DNA of 6,494 bases, from positions 1 through 6,494 of the forward strand of contig DAOVRJ010000146.1 in assembly GCA_030628225.1 (NCBI GenBank). Direction: 5' to 3'. Origin of the DNA: Candidatus Zixiibacteriota bacterium. Its GTDB lineage: Bacteria > SM23-81. The notes beneath the pieces are model-generated. The model was not told the DNA's origin, did no database searches, and saw only the letters and a program-made list of their open reading frames with translations. Both the position numbers and the translations under genes were made by a program. Positions 37 to 6,494 of the stretch are shown in pieces. Positions within the stretch are counted from its first letter, which is position 1, and the number at the start of each line of letters is the position of its first letter.

Positions 37-270
37 TTAGATCATCTTCTTCAAATTTCTCAGCTCGTTGTAGAATTGAAGGAACTGGCTGTTGATGAAC
101 TCCACCTTGAGCCGATCATTTTCTCCATCCACGTTAAACGTGAACAGTATTTTTGATTTCTTGCTATCTGATCTGATGAGCCGATAGCCTTTCATCTTCA
201 GGTAGGCTGAAAATGCCAGGTCATCGGTGGTGATGTGATTGTCTGCGATTTGATGTGCATCAACGCTCAT
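37..270 (-). CDS. Small DUF5659-like protein, function unknown
   Basis: This encodes 77 residues with no signal peptide, membrane segment or Cys, so it is probably cytoplasmic. The pattern resembles DUF5659-type proteins from memory: an N-terminal TTDDLAFSAYLKMKGYRL segment (an active 'lives on shelf of sequence X' helix plus first strand), then KKSKILFTFNVDG, then a C-terminal helix with FYNELRNLKKM. No biochemical role is known to me for the family. The start at 270 follows AAGGAG (285..280) with 9 nt of spacing. It is the first gene downstream of an RpoE-like promoter matching that of the sigma-factor operon, and it is followed after 19 nt by another gene, so it is a likely member of the same stress regulon. 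It is more A+T rich than the genes to its right. The reading as a real gene is firm; the family name is moderate. Confidence 0.8.
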   Translation of the reverse strand: MSVDAHQIADNHITTDDLAFSAYLKMKGYRLIRSDSKKSKILFTFNVDGENDRLKVEFINSQFLQFYNELRNLKKMI

Positions 271-626: not shown

Positions 627-1091
627 TTACCCCTCATCTCTGTCCGGTGGAGGTGGATGTAATCCTCCCTTCGTTGGAAGAGGTGGCGAAGACCCGGGCT
701 CATGCTGTCTCCAAGGACCCGGTCGTCGATCCCTGAAATGTTTTGGCGGCTTGGGCTGCCTTTCCAATCGCTTTTTTTGCTCCTCGGTGAGAATGGGATC
801 CAGGTCTTTTTTCAACGAATCTCTCAGGGCCAGCATCTCACCCTCGAATCGGGAATGGATCTTGAGAAATCGCTGCGAATGCTTGCGCAAAATGTCACGC
901 ACCGCCTCGCGCTGCGATTCATCCGGATCGATGATTCTTTCCACATGCGCCCCCATACGTCCCGGCTCTCTCATGGACATGAATCGTCCGATGCGATGTC
1001 GAGCAAAAGCCCCGGTGATCAAGGCCCCGATGATCATCCCGATGATCAGGGTGATCAGGATAACCAGGACGGTCTTCGTTCCCATTTTCAT
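627..1091 (-). CDS. Membrane-anchored periplasmic CnrX/Spy-like sensor protein
   Basis: The 154-residue protein has an N-terminal membrane anchor (about residues 6-29, very Ile/Leu/Gly rich) and then a charged helical periplasmic part. Residues 52-110 look like the helical hairpin of the Spy/CpxP/ZraP/CnrX superfamily: a PDESQREAVRDIL helix, a second helix with DSLKKDLDPIL, and LTEEQKKRLE, an LTxxQ-like motif. The tail (111-154) is Pro/Arg/His rich and probably disordered. His49, His71 and His79 with nearby Glu and Met could bind metal, but this is inference. The ATG overlaps the anti-sigma stop as ATGA, and GGAGG (1103..1099) lies 7 nt upstream. As third gene after sigma and anti-sigma it may signal to the anti-sigma, as CnrX does to CnrY, or act as a chaperone. 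Exact family membership is uncertain. Confidence 0.82.
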   Translation of the reverse strand: MKMGTKTVLVILITLIIGMIIGALITGAFARHRIGRFMSMREPGRMGAHVERIIDPDESQREAVRDILRKHSQRFLKIHSRFEGEMLALRDSLKKDLDPILTEEQKKRLERQPKPPKHFRDRRPGPWRQHEPGSSPPLPTKGGLHPPPPDRDEG

Positions 1092-1522
1092 AGCAATTCC
1101 TCCAGCGTAAAGTCAAATGGCGATTCCAGCACCTCCTCGAGGGTCTCCTGGGGCATGCCCAAGACCCCCGCCACGGAAACATCGCCGGTCTTCACGAAAT
1201 TGTAGACCGCTAAAGCGATGATCACCGTCGCACCCACGACGGCCACGCGGCGAAAAGCATATTGCAGCGATTCGAAGAACGCTTCCGCGCTTCTGCTTCT
1301 CTCCCTGGTCGAAGCGATCCTGCGCATCACCCTCTCGGCAAAGAATGGTTTAAACGACTTGGCAGCGCTGGCCGAAATGGCACCGCGCATGGCCGTGATT
1401 CGCTCTTTCTCTTCCCGTAACTCCTTTGATCCGGCCAGCGCCTCCTCAAGCTGCTCTTTTTCCCGGGGCGTCAGCGAGTCATCAAAGGATCGATAGAGTA
1501 ACTCAATCGCTTTTTTGTTCAT
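1088..1522 (-). CDS. Single-pass anti-sigma factor, no zinc motif
   Basis: The 144-residue protein has a cytoplasmic N-terminal helical region (about 1-88), one membrane helix (about 93-110, VAVVGATVIIALAVYNFV) and a short acidic periplasmic tail. The opening IELLYRSFDDSLTPREKEQLEEAL follows the layout of anti-sigma N-terminal domains (short helix, D-x-L-T/S-P-E-E turn, second helix). However, the protein has no Cys at all, so the HxxxCxxC zinc site of ZAS-type anti-sigmas is absent. It would bind the adjacent ECF sigma at the inner membrane and release it on an envelope signal. The start overlaps the sigma stop as ATGA, with GGAG 7 nt upstream, so translation is coupled. The short tail (about 34 residues) may contact the following CnrX/Spy-like protein. 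Function is assigned mainly from position and topology. Confidence 0.85.
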   Translation of the reverse strand: MNKKAIELLYRSFDDSLTPREKEQLEEALAGSKELREEKERITAMRGAISASAAKSFKPFFAERVMRRIASTRERSRSAEAFFESLQYAFRRVAVVGATVIIALAVYNFVKTGDVSVAGVLGMPQETLEEVLESPFDFTLEELL

Positions 1523-2082
1523 CGCTCATCTCCAATATAAGGTGATAACAGTTCTTTTAATTTATCCTGTGCCCGGGCCAGTCGCGACAGCACTGTGCCC
1601 ACAGGAACATTTAAAATATCCGCCGTCTCTCGCGTTGAATATCCGTCAATAAGCCTGAGGACCACCACCGACCGAAACTTGCTTTCCAGCTTCTGGATGG
1701 CTCGTTGCACCATTTCTCTATCCTCGTTCAGCTCACTGTCCGCTTTTGGATCGGGAATGTCATAGGCTTCTTCGATCGGTCTGGAAAAAAACAACACCGA
1801 CCTGCGCCTGCGCCGCTTCAGCTCATTCAGGGATAAATTAATGGCAATCCGGGTGAGATAGGTTCCAACGCCGGATTCACCGCGAAATTTCTTCAATCCC
1901 CTGTAGAAACGGATAAAGGTTTCCTGACCGACATCCTCTGCCTCCGCGCACCTGCCCAGCATGCCGATAACCGTCGCGGCAACACGGGACTCATGGCGCC
2001 TGACAAGCTCCTGGAAGGCATTCTGGTCACCTTCACGCGCGGCTGTGATCAGTTTCTCGTCCGTCAAAGTCTTTTCCGTCAA
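1519..2082 (-). CDS. ECF-type RNA polymerase sigma factor (RpoE-like)
   Basis: From the TTG at 2082 the protein has 187 residues, a normal ECF length. Region 2 spans about 8-92, with AEDVGQETFIRFYRGLKKFRG (49-69 area) for core binding and -10 recognition, then TYLTRIAINLSLNELKRRRRR. Region 4 spans about 124-180, with the helix-turn-helix STRETADILNVPVGTVLSRLARAQDKL that reads the -35. There is no region 1.1 or 3, as expected for the class. The frame is open up to an ATG at 2235, but that extension would span the promoter at 2111-2140 and has no conserved sequence. The TTG is preceded by AAGGAAAGGGA. It heads an operon with its anti-sigma and a CnrX/Spy-like sensor, and probably activates its own promoter and the one at 327-356. 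Function is firm; the regulon is inferred. Confidence 0.93.
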   Translation of the reverse strand: MTEKTLTDEKLITAAREGDQNAFQELVRRHESRVAATVIGMLGRCAEAEDVGQETFIRFYRGLKKFRGESGVGTYLTRIAINLSLNELKRRRRRSVLFFSRPIEEAYDIPDPKADSELNEDREMVQRAIQKLESKFRSVVVLRLIDGYSTRETADILNVPVGTVLSRLARAQDKLKELLSPYIGDER

Positions 2083-2091
2083 AAGGTCTGG

Positions 2092-2102
2092 TCCCTTTCC
2101 TT
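2092..2102 (-). promoter_or_regulatory. Ribosome binding site deciding the TTG start of the sigma gene
   Basis: AAGGAAAGGGA on the minus strand ends 9 nt before the TTG at 2082..2080. A transcript begun at the ECF promoter would start near 2105, so the leader is only about 20 nt and contains just this site. That makes the TTG the only sensible start. Confidence 0.65.
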
Positions 2103-2110
2103 GTTCACTA

Positions 2111-2140
2111 ATTAGACAACCCAAAATCGGGATACATTCC
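2111..2140 (-). promoter_or_regulatory. Autoregulatory RpoE-like promoter of the sigma operon
   Basis: GGAAT (2140..2136, within CGGGAAT at 2142..2136), a 16-nt spacer and TTGTCTAAT (2119..2111) lie 28 nt before the TTG start. The GGAA-type -35 and GTCTAA -10 resemble sigma-E promoters. The same two elements with the same spacing occur at 327-356. ECF sigma genes commonly transcribe themselves, so the obvious reading is positive autoregulation. A base-line promoter for the operon is not evident. Confidence 0.8.
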
Positions 2141-2142
2141 CG
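2128..2142. repeat. Inverted repeat over the -35 of the sigma promoter
   Basis: CGGGA (2128-2132) and TCCCG (2138-2142) form a perfect 5-bp inverted repeat with a 5-nt centre overlapping the -35 element. The promoter at 327-356 keeps it imperfectly (CTGGA 344-348, TCCCG 354-358). It could be an operator for a dimeric regulator or extended sequence read by the sigma factor; a 5-bp arm can also be chance. Confidence 0.3.
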
Positions 2143-2448
2143 TTTTTGAGAGTTTTTGGGGGGGAAGAGCATCGGCGAACTGCCATGCTCTGAGACCGCA
2201 GAATCACAAGGAAACCATAGCTGCAAAAGATACATTGGTAAAATATAGCGGATTTTTTCAAACGCAAGAGCTAAACATAAAATAAGTTCAACTCAAAAGG
2301 CCGCCCTTCCGCAGAAAGACGGCCTTAAAAAGGGGGCGGATGTCTAAGCCTGGGTTCCAGAGGTAATCGTTATACTTCCCCGGCTTTTTGCAGAGAAAGC
2401 CACCTCACAAGTTCGACACCCGCCCGATACGAGACGATCTGTTTCCAA
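2143..2448. other. Intergenic region between sigma operon promoter and secreted-protein gene
   Basis: About 300 bases with no supported gene. It contains the hairpin terminator at 2297-2326 and, between that and the stop at 2451, a trailer of about 120 nt. A weak hairpin GGCTTT/AAAGCC (2382-2401) lacks a following T run. I see no tRNA, no second ECF-type promoter and no direct repeats here. Confidence 0.6.
2295..2326 (-). terminator. Intrinsic terminator after the secreted multimodular protein gene
   Basis: On the minus strand, AAGGCCGTCTTTC (2326..2314), loop TGCG (2313..2310) and GAAGGGCGGCCTT (2309..2297) form a 13-bp stem with two wobble pairs, followed by TT at 2296..2295, so that the run is CCTTTTG. 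The loop is of the stable cUNCGg type. The T run is short, but four U in total with a very strong stem is adequate. It lies about 120 nt after the stop of the gene at 2449 and insulates the sigma operon from readthrough. Confidence 0.8.
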
Positions 2449-4467
2449 CTACTTTGCGTTCAGCAAATCCTTGTCGAATTCACCAACGGGATTAGATTGA
2501 GCCGACTCCTTGGTGACGGAGACAGCGATCACCGAGTAATAGTAGTGGGTCACGGCGCTGCCCACTACCCCGGAAACATCCAGGTAGAACAGGTCCGTGG
2601 TGGAATCGATCAGAGTGGTTCCGACTTCACCGGCGGCGGTGTCGCGATAGATCTTGTAGCGATCCACCCACACCGGATGGTCGTTGAGATTCAGGGTCAC
2701 CGCCGACCACTCCAGCTGCAGATCGTCGGCGGACAGGGCGACGGTCAGGTCGTCAACGGCCTTGGGGATCACGTCCCTGAAGTAGCCGAACAGGTCCGTG
2801 GGCCTGATCTGCGGGTTGCCCACACCGTAGTTATCGTCGTCGGTGATGTGAATCCTGTTGACGTAAGGCGGCAGATCGTTGTCGAAAGCACCGTTGCCAT
2901 ACTTGTACTCCACCCACTCGCTGGATCCCCTGGGGAAGGTGATGGTGGCGGACCAGATATCGTCCCCGGCGGTGACATCTCCATTATACCCCTCGTCGTT
3001 GAGGGTGTCGTCGTTGGCCGGATCGAAGTCCCAGCTCAGCGGAGCCACGCTGCCCACCACCAGCAGCGGGAGCATCACCGAGTCGGCGGTGGTCATGTCC
3101 ACGGAGAAGACCACCGGCACGTCATGGTTGGCCTGTTCCTGGGTGGTATAGGTCAGCTCCTGAGCCGTTTGATCGACCACCTGGAACTGCCAGTTGCCGT
3201 CGATCCAGACGCCGCCGGTATCCGTGACGCCCCACTCCCAGGTGTTGGTACCACCATCGGGCACCAGGTCGAGGGTGCGCTTCCAGATGTGGTCTCCAGG
3301 TGTGTCATCGCCGTTGGTCCCGTCGTCGTACATATCATACAGGAAACCCAACCCCCAGGAGGCATCGTAGGCATGATAGGTGTTGGTATCCCAGCTACCC
3401 TTGAACTTGAAACCGGGGGCCCAGACGCTGTCCGCTGAATCGTCCACGATGAAGGTCACCTGGGCGATGCCGAATCCGGTGAAGGTGGCCTCGTCGTGGT
3501 CCGGATGGATATAGTTGCCGGCCATGTCCTCTACCGAGGAGCTCACCTGCACTGTGTACTCGACGCCGTAAGTTTGACTGCTGGTGGTCAACCTGACACC
3601 GTCAACGCCCAGTGACTCAGCGGCCGTCACCGACAACCCGGCTATGGTGTAGTTTGCGGGATTGAAGGCCGAGGTGTCCATGGCCTCGCTGAAGGTCACC
3701 TCCACGTGCGTCCAGTCAGTGGCCAAGGCTCCCAACACCCAGGGCTTGGTGGTGTCCGCGCCGCTGGTCTCGTGAACCAGGGTGGAGAGGTCCAGGTAGG
3801 CCATGGTGGACCAGTCGCCCTCGGGACCGTTCCAGTCGTCGGCCGGGTCGTTGGATGTGTCCCGGGCATTGTCATGGTCTCCACCGCCGGTGTCCCACAC
3901 CTCACACCACAGAGAATCGGGAGAGCCGATCCGCGACTTCTCTATTTTCCACTCCAAACCCGAGGTGGCCTCGGTGCTGATGCCCACGCCGTCTAAATTC
4001 CCATACATCGTCCAGCTGCCAGCACCATCGTCATAGGCCCAAAATTGCGTGTGATTAACATCGTAGGGCGGGCTATCGACCCAACTGTATATGCTATATT
4101 CGGGCAGGTGCGGATCATTACAGCGCACGTTACGGGTCCAGGCATCGGAGGTATCGGCCCCCGATCCGCTGACCCCATCGGTGTCCAGATAGATGACGTA
4201 CTTGCCCCAGTTGGTTGCCCCGATGTCATCGTCGATGGTGAAGCAGAAATACCAGTAGGTGCCGTCGTTGCAAACGTAAAGGTCAACAAGATCCATGTTG
4301 TCATTGCCGCCCCCGTCCGTGCTGGGATCGGAGGCCTCGGCCGAGCCGTAACAGGCATCGGGGGTTCCATCCATGACTGGTGAGCCAAATCCCTCGGCCC
4401 AGACGCCGGTGGACCAGAGTAGAGCACCGGCCATCAGAATGACCAGGGACAAGAAGATCTTTTTCAT
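2449..4467 (-). CDS. Secreted multimodular carbohydrate-binding-like protein
   Basis: The 672-residue exported protein has a signal peptide at 1-24 (MKK..., hydrophobic core, VWA cleavage site). Next comes a CBM9/DOMON-like beta-sandwich at about 26-230 (WYFCFTIDDDIGATNWGKYVIYLDTD), then a Big_5/SbsA-type Ig-like domain at about 239-332 (VEVTFSEAMD ... YTVQVSSSVEDMAGN). Two related modules resembling starch-binding CBM20/48 domains follow at about 335-443 and 448-565, each with a D-G-x-N-G-D-x-T-x-G-D-x-I-W loop (379-395 and 489-505). An Fn3 module (569-657) and the tail SNPVGEFDKDLLNAK complete it. No catalytic domain is recognisable. An upstream in-frame ATG at 4485 is possible, but the ATG at 4467 has AGGAG 7 nt upstream and gives a normal signal peptide. 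It has its own promoter and shares the Fn3 end with the peptidase. Glycan binding is inferred from module style. Confidence 0.85.
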   Translation of the reverse strand: MKKIFLSLVILMAGALLWSTGVWAEGFGSPVMDGTPDACYGSAEASDPSTDGGGNDNMDLVDLYVCNDGTYWYFCFTIDDDIGATNWGKYVIYLDTDGVSGSGADTSDAWTRNVRCNDPHLPEYSIYSWVDSPPYDVNHTQFWAYDDGAGSWTMYGNLDGVGISTEATSGLEWKIEKSRIGSPDSLWCEVWDTGGGDHDNARDTSNDPADDWNGPEGDWSTMAYLDLSTLVHETSGADTTKPWVLGALATDWTHVEVTFSEAMDTSAFNPANYTIAGLSVTAAESLGVDGVRLTTSSQTYGVEYTVQVSSSVEDMAGNYIHPDHDEATFTGFGIAQVTFIVDDSADSVWAPGFKFKGSWDTNTYHAYDASWGLGFLYDMYDDGTNGDDTPGDHIWKRTLDLVPDGGTNTWEWGVTDTGGVWIDGNWQFQVVDQTAQELTYTTQEQANHDVPVVFSVDMTTADSVMLPLLVVGSVAPLSWDFDPANDDTLNDEGYNGDVTAGDDIWSATITFPRGSSEWVEYKYGNGAFDNDLPPYVNRIHITDDDNYGVGNPQIRPTDLFGYFRDVIPKAVDDLTVALSADDLQLEWSAVTLNLNDHPVWVDRYKIYRDTAAGEVGTTLIDSTTDLFYLDVSGVVGSAVTHYYYSVIAVSVTKESAQSNPVGEFDKDLLNAK
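2773..3465 (-). repeat. Two tandem CBM20/48-like modules (protein-level repeat)
   Basis: The two modules (3465..3139 and 3126..2773) are diverged copies. The clearest match is MYDDGTNGDDTPGDHIW against LNDEGYNGDVTAGDDIW, 110 residues apart, each followed by an alternating hydrophobic strand. The Asp/Asn-rich loop could hold calcium. Similarity is visible in the protein only. Confidence 0.65.
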
Positions 4468-4474
4468 ACCCCTT

Positions 4475-4480
4475 CTCCTT
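4475..4480 (-). promoter_or_regulatory. Ribosome binding site deciding the start of the secreted protein
   Basis: AAGGAG lies 7 nt before the ATG at 4467. The alternative ATG at 4485 has AGGA immediately abutting it, which is too close, and would add MERRRG before the signal peptide. Confidence 0.75.
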
Positions 4481-4532
4481 TCCATTCCTGCAAATAGTGA
4501 AGAGCCTAAAAAGGTAACATCTCTACCAATTT

Positions 4533-4592: not shown

Positions 4593-6494
4593 CTACTTTG
4601 CCGCATCCAAATCCCTGTCGAACTCGCCGACCCTATTGGATTCGCCGGACTTTTGACCTGCGGCATCCACAGCCTTGACCGCATAGAAGTAATTGCTGCC
4701 CACATCGCCGGCCGCTCCCATATCCGTGTAAGCGGTATCCACAGTGCCGGCAAGAGAATCGCCCAAAGAGCCGGGTGCGGTGCTGCGGTAGACCACATAG
4801 CGGGTGACGCCGCACTCGCTGTAGGGCTCGGTCCACTCCAGGCGAATGTCTTCGCCCATAAGTGTACTGGCCAGGTCGTCGATGGCCATGGGCAAAGAGC
4901 AGATATTGATGCGCAGAGTTGGATCGCCGATGAGCACGAGACCATAGTACCAGCAGACCTCCCAGTTGTAGAAGCCATCCTGTCCCTGTTTGCGGAACCA
5001 CTCCTGCAGGGCCTGCCCCACACAACAACCCTCTCCCAGCTCGCAATAGAAATCTTCAAATTCGAGCATCGACCCGGACTTGGTGGAACCGATGGTGGAC
5101 AGTCCGTAGGTATCGGCAAAGGTGTATTTTCCGGCCAGGTAATTTGACTCGGTGAAACGGGCCGCCGAGCAGGCGAAGAGGTTGTAAAGAAAGCCGTCCG
5201 GGTCTATCGTCTGGATCTCACTGGCGGAGAGCTCTCCTCCATCCTCGGAGAAGTATTCCTCCAGATCGAACCAATCCCCGGTGCCATACCCGGGAGCCCA
5301 GACGAAGGAACCCGTGGAATCCCCCTCCCCTGGCTGAACGGTCGCCTCACCACCCAGGTAATCCTGGGTGAGACGGGTGGCCGGGTCGTGATTCTTGTAG
5401 TATCCGTTCATCAGCCATCCGTGGATGTAATCCGCGGTCGTGGGGGCGGGATCGTAGGCAAGTCCTTCCACCTCCAACTTCTCAGAATCCCCAAGCCTCC
5501 CGGAGAGCTGAGCGCCATACCAGACGCTGATCTTGATCAGCAGGCGATTCCAGCCCGCCGCCAGATCGAGCTGCACCTGTTGAGCATCCGGTTCGAAGCT
5601 GTGATAGGTGTTGTCGTAGTAAACCACATCGCCGTTGAGCCATATCTTGGCCCCGGAGTATGTGCCCAGCCAGAGAGTTATTGTCTGGGCGGACTCGCTG
5701 TACAGATGAGTAAAGGCGTAGACGGCTCCCACATCCATGTCGCCGTAGATGGTGGAGAAATCGAGAAATCCGGAGCCGATGTCCCACAGTTGCCAGGTCT
5801 TCCCCCCGGAGACGAGGCCCTCATAGGCGTCGATACCGGCCTCACCTCCCAGGAAATCCTGGTTCAATGCTCCCCAGAAGTTGCTCCAGTAATGAAAACC
5901 GTTGGTCAGCCAGGCGGTGACATAGGGCGCATGCCGGTCGGGGTCATCGGGGTCCTCCAGGTGATAGACCAGCCCGGGGATGGGACTTCCGCCCGTGTCG
6001 GTGAAGCGGGCCTTAAACCCGTAATCATACTTATCCTGAGCGACCTTGACCAGAAGGGAGTTGATTCCCTCGTTCAGGGTAACGGCAACAAGGTCAAATT
6101 CAAAACCATGCGTTCCATTGGGATCGGTCAGTATCACCGACCCGTTCAGCCAGATCTTGAAACCGTCCTGGCCGCTGATGCGCAGCTGGCACTCCCGCGA
6201 AGAGTCGGATTCGACATAGACATGAGCATAGCAGGCGCAGTCGCAGGGCCGGGAGCTGAAGACGTGACCGCCGGGCCAGGAGTGGGCGCAGACCTGGATG
6301 GTCTCATAGCCCGTGCCCAGCTCGATGGCGTATGTGTCGGCAACGGTCGTCTGATGGTCATTGACGGCCTTCACCTGGGAGGAATAGATGGAGTCCATGC
6401 CGCAGGTGGTCCAGTCACTCCAGTCGTCATCGATAAAGGTCAATCCGCGTTGGGGCTGAGCAAGAGTTCCCCCTCTGTGGGCGGCTATTTTGCC
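4593..6494 (-). CDS. C25 (gingipain)-like cysteine peptidase with large insert, N-terminus outside window
   Basis: The frame is open to the window edge; 633 residues are visible and the N-terminus with any signal peptide is missing. A TTG at 6443 is internal, since TLAQPQRGLTFIDDDW continues through it. Peptidase motifs, numbered from the edge: IDDDW (21-25), the probable catalytic His in AHSWPGGHVF (His71, codon 6284..6282), the probable catalytic Cys in NLFACSAARF (Cys442, codon 5171..5169), GSTKSGSML (469-477) and LIGDPTLR (521-528). This is the pattern of C25-like peptidases in FCB-type bacteria. Between His and Cys lies an insert (about 79-415) of two jelly-roll-like units; family members usually have some 30-45 residues there. 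An Fn3 module (536-618) and the tail SNRVGEFDRDLDAAK end the protein. It probably acts outside the cell or on its surface; substrate unknown. Confidence 0.88.
   Translation of the reverse strand, partial: GKIAAHRGGTLAQPQRGLTFIDDDWSDWTTCGMDSIYSSQVKAVNDHQTTVADTYAIELGTGYETIQVCAHSWPGGHVFSSRPCDCACYAHVYVESDSSRECQLRISGQDGFKIWLNGSVILTDPNGTHGFEFDLVAVTLNEGINSLLVKVAQDKYDYGFKARFTDTGGSPIPGLVYHLEDPDDPDRHAPYVTAWLTNGFHYWSNFWGALNQDFLGGEAGIDAYEGLVSGGKTWQLWDIGSGFLDFSTIYGDMDVGAVYAFTHLYSESAQTITLWLGTYSGAKIWLNGDVVYYDNTYHSFEPDAQQVQLDLAAGWNRLLIKISVWYGAQLSGRLGDSEKLEVEGLAYDPAPTTADYIHGWLMNGYYKNHDPATRLTQDYLGGEATVQPGEGDSTGSFVWAPGYGTGDWFDLEEYFSEDGGELSASEIQTIDPDGFLYNLFACSAARFTESNYLAGKYTFADTYGLSTIGSTKSGSMLEFEDFYCELGEGCCVGQALQEWFRKQGQDGFYNWEVCWYYGLVLIGDPTLRINICSLPMAIDDLASTLMGEDIRLEWTEPYSECGVTRYVVYRSTAPGSLGDSLAGTVDTAYTDMGAAGDVGSNYFYAVKAVDAAGQKSGESNRVGEFDRDLDAAK
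5250..6260 (-). repeat. Duplicated jelly-roll module inserted in the peptidase
   Basis: Two copies of a module of about 165-170 residues are seen in the protein. The beta-sandwich halves (6236..6000 and 5726..5496) share FKIWLNG/AKIWLNG, then a long loop, then GINSLLVKV/GWNRLLIKI. The lead-in halves share WLTNG...LNQDFLGGEA and WLMNG...LTQDYLGGEA, 165 residues apart. The order is sandwich, lead-in, sandwich, lead-in, so the copies are in permuted register compared with the usual lead-in-then-sandwich order seen in such modules. No DNA-level identity long enough to suggest recent duplication was noticed. Confidence 0.7.

What the first reader, a model, noticed from the sequence alone, without database searches (positions are those of the whole stretch)
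5250..6260. Jelly-roll pair inserted between the catalytic His and Cys of a C25-like peptidase
The His motif (AHSWPGGHVF) and Cys motif (NLFACSAARF) are about 371 residues apart, while gingipain-type peptidases place them about 33-45 residues apart. The insert consists of two repeated carbohydrate-binding-like beta-sandwich units. Flanking peptidase sequence resumes in register (FSEDGGELSASEIQTIDPDGFLYNLFACS). An insert placed between dyad residues could gate the active site, recognise a glycosylated substrate, or be a removable pro-like element. I do not know of a described example.
Basis: partly seen in the sequence, partly recalled or inferred. Interest (0 to 1): 0.78.

Follow-up and report, generated by a model that had tools for sequence, protein, structure and literature searches.

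The report
Gingipain-like protease with permuted jelly-roll insert
A secreted gingipain-like protease from uncultured sediment bacteria carries, exactly between its two catalytic residues, two sugar-binding-type domains spliced in half a domain out of phase, so that one domain is split around the other; it probably helps hold substrate next to the active site, though that is untested.

Summary
On the minus strand, His71 and Cys442 of a contig-edge-truncated C25-like peptidase lie 371 residues apart. In 23 insert-free homologues where I could measure it, the spacing is 33-44 (one 67). Two independent orthologues (L011, L012) have the identical 371 spacing with no length change, the insert is under purifying selection, and the trio is one clade, so it is neither chance nor an assembly artefact. 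A profile built from unrelated proteins matches the insert as positions 66-163, then 2-159, then 2-63 of a 164-position jelly-roll unit, in all three orthologues. That is one intact galactose-binding-like domain nested inside a second that is split and circularly permuted: two repeat periods spliced in half a unit out of phase. Both ends of the insert then fall in one inter-strand turn, which would let a two-domain arm sit on a single loop (L3 of clan CD). Best guess at function: a substrate-binding exosite beside the cleft, like PA domains in subtilases. The full-length model failed (pLDDT 35), so closeness of the dyad and pairing of the halves are unproven. No described example found. New variant of a known kind.

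The parts
4593..6494 (-). C25-like peptidase gene, 5' end cut off by the contig edge (633 aa seen; the orthologue L011 supplies the missing N-terminus)
   Evidence: PF01364 in L011 at 37.8 bits against a cut-off of 23
6258..6494 (-). peptidase part before the insert (residues 1-79), with the invariant DDDW motif and catalytic-His motif
   Evidence: alignment A1
6282..6284 (-). His71, predicted catalytic His (AHSWPGGHVF)
   Evidence: invariant in A1; aligned with the His of strong C25 members
5244..6257 (-). insert between catalytic His and Cys (residues 80-417), at the L3 position of clan CD
   Evidence: absent from the insert-free homologues examined, same length in three orthologues
5952..6242 (-). 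A2: C-terminal ~60% of a jelly-roll unit (residues 85-181, profile positions 66-163)
   Evidence: independent profile; PF02837 positions 75-134 of 169 at residues 94-152, 30.4 bits, cut-off 28
5454..5927 (-). B: intact jelly-roll unit (residues 190-347, profile 2-159)
   Evidence: model pLDDT 67.5, pTM 0.71; galactose-binding-like folds of GH2 enzymes and PA14, Z up to 9.7
5244..5432 (-). C1: N-terminal ~40% of a jelly-roll unit (residues 355-417, profile 2-63), complement of A2
4914..5243 (-). peptidase part after the insert (residues 418-527), ending in the GDPTL motif
   Evidence: A1
5169..5171 (-). Cys442, predicted catalytic Cys (NLFACSAARF)
   Evidence: invariant in A1; aligned with the C25 Cys
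4596..4889 (-). C-terminal fibronectin-III-like domain (by sequence pattern; no Pfam match) with SNRVGEFDRDL tail, shared with many proteins of this lineage

Best explanation
SHOWN: a C25-like peptidase of a Zixibacteria-type lineage carries ~338 residues in the loop after its catalytic His (clan CD loop L3), made of two repeat periods of a galactose-binding-like jelly-roll unit in half-unit-shifted order: second half, whole unit, first half. INFERRED: the two halves pair into one discontinuous, circularly permuted domain at the base, with the intact domain nested at its natural termini as the distal tip. Because both ends of the insert lie in one inter-strand turn, the arm sits on the loop without pulling His and Cys apart. 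INFERRED: the most parsimonious origin is a single splice of two periods out of a tandem array, before the split of the two bacterial families that carry it. INFERRED, weaker: the arm is a substrate-binding exosite beside the cleft that holds glycosylated or particulate protein, as inserted PA domains do in subtilases.
For: Complementary tiling 66-163 / 2-159 / 2-63 or 64 in three orthologues, from a profile that excludes them. A2 resembles B2 and C1 resembles B1 but not the reverse. In about 35 other proteins the unit is read in order 1 then 2, never with a trailing first half. In the B model the cut falls in the turn between strands 62-68 and 74-84. Fold matches are GH2 sugar-binding domains, CBM6, CBM35 and PA14. 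H-C spacing exactly 371 in all three. Trio clade support 1.000 and ultrafast bootstrap 100. dN/dS 0.05-0.28 wherever computable. dN/dS of B 0.07-0.10, aromatic FHxWxxFW conserved. Analogy: the inserted PA domain of subtilase P57 binds collagen through aromatics (PMC5177683).
Against: No reliable full-length model: pLDDT 34.8, so His-Cys proximity and pairing of the halves are not demonstrated. A2 holds seven of the strands and might fold nearly alone. Jelly-roll folds are common, B scores are moderate (Z 8.5-9.7, low identity), and binding of any sugar or protein is untested. Only three genomes carry the arrangement. dS is near saturation in places.
Confidence: 0.5

Rival explanations
1. The insert is a gate that restricts access to the cleft, so only some substrates reach the dyad.
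For: Position in L3, beside the dyad in clan CD (PMC4357240). [quoted passage not shown]
Against: No structure shows the arm over the cleft. Not exclusive of the exosite role.
Confidence: 0.2
2. The insert is a pro-like element removed or cleaved on activation, as the loop between His and Cys is in family C11.
For: In PmC11 the autocleavage site Lys147 lies between His133 and Cys179 and is proposed to cause steric autoinhibition; clostripain loses a nonapeptide on activation (PMC4850288).
Against: If cleavage is after Arg/Lys, excision needs a basic residue at each end. The window protein has none between His+303 and Cys, the basic residue at the C-terminal junction is Lys in L012 and L011 but Glu in the window, and that at the N-terminal junction precedes Pro. 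A folded, conserved, length-constant arm looks kept.
Confidence: 0.15
3. The insert is a stabilising or neutral decoration with no role in catalysis.
For: Its position in a loop with both ends close together would be tolerated. No function has been measured.
Against: Purifying selection in insert as in peptidase and no length change among three lineages.
Confidence: 0.15
4. Two ordinary tandem jelly-roll domains, not permuted.
For: The insert length equals two units, and A2 alone already contains most strands.
Against: No first half precedes A2 and no second half follows C1; the profile coordinates are complementary in three orthologues.
Confidence: 0.04
5. Assembly chimera or chance frame.
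For: The window is a short draft contig.
Against: Same junctions and length in three separately recovered genomes, open frames, dN/dS well below 1.
Confidence: 0.01

Closest known systems
Gingipain family C25 (RgpB, Kgp; Pfam PF01364), clan CD
   Same: PF01364 match above cut-off in L011 and L012; His and Cys align; C-terminal GDP motif; secreted look.
   Different: His-Cys spacing 371 instead of about 33-44. From my own knowledge, the jelly-roll adhesin domains of gingipains lie C-terminal to the catalytic domain, not within it.
[quoted passage not shown]
   Same: A beta-rich domain inserted within a peptidase catalytic domain (between active-site residues, from my own knowledge); binds insoluble substrate or limits access (PMC5177683).
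   Different: Unrelated peptidase clan and insert family; one domain, not permuted.
C11 peptidases (PmC11, clostripain)
   Same: Clan CD; the segment between His and Cys controls activity (PMC4850288).
   Different: A short helix and loop cut by autolysis, no inserted domain.
GH2 N-terminal sugar-binding domain (PF02837), CBM6/CBM35, PA14 and other galactose-binding-like folds
   Same: PF02837 match over cut-off on A2; B model aligns along the whole domain in the same strand order.
   Different: Here one copy is split and permuted and sits in a peptidase loop; ligand unknown.
Androglobin (calpain-like peptidase with a circularly permuted globin, PMC11077535)
   Same: A permuted domain in a cysteine peptidase.
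   Different: Unrelated families; not read beyond its listing.

Membership tests
Peptidase family C25 | match to PF01364 above the curated cut-off | tested here: met
   L011 37.8 bits, L012 29.6 bits, cut-off 23. The truncated window protein alone gives no match.
Peptidase family C25 | His and Cys at the family's catalytic positions | tested here: met
   Profile-profile alignment of insert-free homologues with seven strong C25s, 97.7%, E 1.5e-12, His on His and Cys on Cys; invariant in A1.
Peptidase family C25 | His and Cys about 33-45 residues apart in sequence (usual, not defining) | tested here: not met
   371 in all three orthologues.
Peptidase family C25 | caspase-like alpha/beta fold with the dyad side by side | tested here: inconclusive
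   Full-length model too poor, pLDDT 34.8; no PDB match by sequence.
Peptidase family C25 | cysteine peptidase activity, Arg or Lys in P1 | not testable with these tools
   Needs enzyme assay.
Galactose-binding-like jelly roll (GH2_N and CBM type) | jelly-roll fold in the canonical strand order (unit B) | tested here: met
   Model pLDDT 67.5, pTM 0.71; Z 9.7 to a GH2 beta-galactosidase, 9.5 to a beta-glucuronidase. Moderate Z values.
Galactose-binding-like jelly roll (GH2_N and CBM type) | carbohydrate binding | not testable with these tools
   No ligand data.
Circularly permuted discontinuous domain | two complementary parts of one unit in reversed order | tested here: met
   Profile 66-163 at 85-181 and 2-63 at 355-417; columns meet without overlap.
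Circularly permuted discontinuous domain | the two parts pack as one domain | tested here: inconclusive
   Full-length model too poor.
T9SS type A substrate | C-terminal sorting domain PF18962 | tested here: not met
   No PF18962 match on the window protein, though the genome has 52 such tails. L011 is cut before its C-terminus.

The most novel reading that the evidence does not exclude
A lectin-gated protease: ligand binding by the nested jelly-roll arm moves the loop that carries it and so aligns or uncovers the His-Cys dyad. The half-unit phase shift is what makes a two-domain sensor compatible with an active-site loop, a general rule for inserting repeat pairs into enzymes.
Probability: 0.12. 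Interest if true: 0.82.

Novelty: new variant of a known kind. Interest (0 to 1): 0.58.

Why it matters
C25 peptidases were the most abundant exported peptidase genes (over 40%) in White Oak River sediments (PMC6752024), and one orthologue comes from a genome whose record title carries a WORSMTZ label. A natural case of a two-domain arm spliced into the loop between catalytic residues, half a unit out of phase so that its ends coincide, shows how evolution can place a large recognition module at an active site without breaking it. It would give protein engineers a testable recipe for domain insertion.

Tried and rejected
Full-length structure (job 1, four rows) failed: pLDDT 34.8. The prediction tool does not list genome-search loci as allowed input, so the insert-free homologues were not used to deepen it. 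PDB sequence searches with the peptidase profile and with the insert: nothing meaningful. Insert query in 386 genomes: 52 have a match, but inside a C25 only the same three; two further small phylum searches found only insert-free homologues. The insert-free peptidase tree does not fix the sister group: weak support. First IQ-TREE run failed on thread count. Literature: 9 searches of an open library found no C25 with an inserted domain; absence there is not proof of novelty. Chimera, chance, and plain tandem domains rejected as in the rivals.

Full report
WHAT IS THERE. The window is a complete 6494-base contig of a draft genome (G000:C38). On the minus strand an open frame runs from the contig edge (6494) to 4593 and encodes 633 residues of a protein whose N-terminus is missing. 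Two orthologues were found in public genomes: L011 (Candidatus Zixiibacteriota bacterium CSMAG_1030), which has the N-terminus with a signal-peptide-like start, and L012 (candidate division Zixibacteria SM23_81). They are the same records as G003 and G001 of the genome search. Identity to the window is 75% and 84%.

PEPTIDASE IDENTITY. The window fragment alone has no PF01364 match, but L011 (37.8 bits) and L012 (29.6 bits) match Peptidase_C25 above its cut-off of 23, and insert-free homologues such as L016 match it from profile position 46 to 374. His (L011 292) and Cys (663) are invariant in an 11-member alignment, as are H298, the DDDW motif and the terminal GD motif. A profile of eight insert-free homologues aligns with a profile of seven strong C25 proteins from the same genome at 97.7% probability, E 1.5e-12, with His on His and Cys on Cys. 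No closer candidate His in the C-terminal half is conserved.

THE INSERT. His71 and Cys442 are 371 residues apart in the window, L011 and L012 alike. In 23 insert-free homologues where both residues could be placed, 22 have 33-44 and one has 67. Searches of 386 related genomes with the insert-free peptidase found about 35 hits in which the region is continuous, and only the three orthologues interrupted by about 1 kb. The trio forms one clade (FastTree support 1.000; ultrafast bootstrap 100); its exact sister is unresolved. Non-synonymous change is well below synonymous in every part of the insert (dN/dS 0.05-0.28 where computable; dS near saturation), similar to the peptidase halves. It is not chance and not an assembly error.

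ITS ANATOMY. Pairwise comparison shows something more specific: the segment after the His motif (A2) resembles only the second part of the central unit (score 112 against a shuffle mean of 25), the segment before the Cys part (C1) resembles only the first part of the central unit (86 against 29), none of 1000 shuffles reaching either, and A2 and C1 do not resemble each other. A profile of 15 units from unrelated proteins, excluding the trio, matches the window protein as 66-163 at residues 85-181, 2-159 at 190-347, and 2-63 at 355-417, and gives the same pattern in L011 and L012. In about 35 other proteins the same unit is read in the order 1 then 2, with no trailing first half; an example is the DUF362 protein L034 of the orthologue's own genome. 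In two of those proteins only the second part is detectable. In alignment A11 the C1 rows end at column 64 and the A2 rows begin at column 65. So the insert holds two unit-equivalents in half-unit-shifted order: one intact unit (B) nested within a split, circularly permuted one (C1 plus A2).

FOLD. Modelled alone with its halves as extra rows, unit B gives a jelly roll (pLDDT 67.5, pTM 0.71). Solved structures that match it are galactose-binding-like domains: GH2 beta-galactosidases and beta-glucuronidases (Z up to 9.7), RetS sensor domain, PA14, CBM6 and CBM35. These Z values are moderate, and fold does not prove sugar binding. The split point falls in the turn between strands 62-68 and 74-84 of the model. 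If the halves pair, both ends of the insert lie side by side in that turn. The full-length model failed (pLDDT 34.8); even so, its two second parts show the same eight-strand pattern. Pairing of the halves and closeness of His and Cys remain inferred.

MECHANISM. The insertion point is loop L3, after the strand that carries His in clan CD (PMC4357240). Most likely the arm is a substrate-binding exosite beside the cleft. Support: conserved B unit with aromatic-rich FHxWxxFW, constant length, sugar-binding-type fold, and the precedent of subtilase PA domains, one of which binds collagen through aromatics while others are reported to limit access (PMC5177683). A pro-like removable element has precedent in C11 (PMC4850288) but is weakened by the lack of Arg/Lys between His+303 and Cys in the window protein, on the assumption of gingipain-like specificity. 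How it arose is inferred: one splice of two periods from a tandem array, which needs no later rearrangement, in the ancestor of the two families.

NOVELTY. Known kind (C25 peptidase, galactose-binding-like domains, domain insertion near an active site), new variant: insertion between the dyad residues with a half-unit phase shift. Nine literature searches in an open-licence library found no described example; this is limited evidence.

LIMITS. Three genomes, one clade; truncated genes (window at 5', L011 at 3', L012 with a frame change near its 5' end); no biochemical data.

Noticed in passing
window 4596-4889 (-) and 2449-4485 (-), C-terminal ends: Both secreted-looking proteins end in a fibronectin-III-like domain with a SNxVGEFDxxL tail close to the stop. 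28 matches in this genome and 44 in the related G001, weaker matches elsewhere; possibly a lineage-specific surface-sorting or anchoring tail used beside the 52 T9SS tails.
   Followed up: partly
window 627-2235 (-): ECF sigma factor, anti-sigma-like protein and a small membrane-anchored protein with a weak Metal_resist match, in overlapping frames (1519/1522 and 1088/1091): looks like a sigma / anti-sigma / periplasmic-sensor operon.
   Followed up: partly
window 2449-4485 (-): 678-aa exported-looking protein with a Big_5 domain and a sub-threshold choice-of-anchor X match, next to the peptidase.
   Followed up: no
window 37-270 (-): 77-aa DUF5659 protein (36.5 bits, cut-off 23.6).
   Followed up: no
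window 6237-6245 and 6189-6191 (-): CxC pair at the very start of the insert (Cys84, Cys86) plus Cys102, conserved in all three orthologues; possible disulfide or metal site at the junction.
   Followed up: no
G000, 17 places: The genome has 17 matches to Peptidase_C25 (two adjacent ones may be one gene), most with full-length domains: a large proteolytic set.
   Followed up: no
L012 about 355-378: Frame change in the orthologue's N-terminal part (contig end), from a sequencing error or a decaying gene.
   Followed up: partly
L027 (G002:C23): An insert-free relative with His-Cys spacing 67 instead of 33-44, so this loop also tolerates smaller extensions.
   Followed up: no
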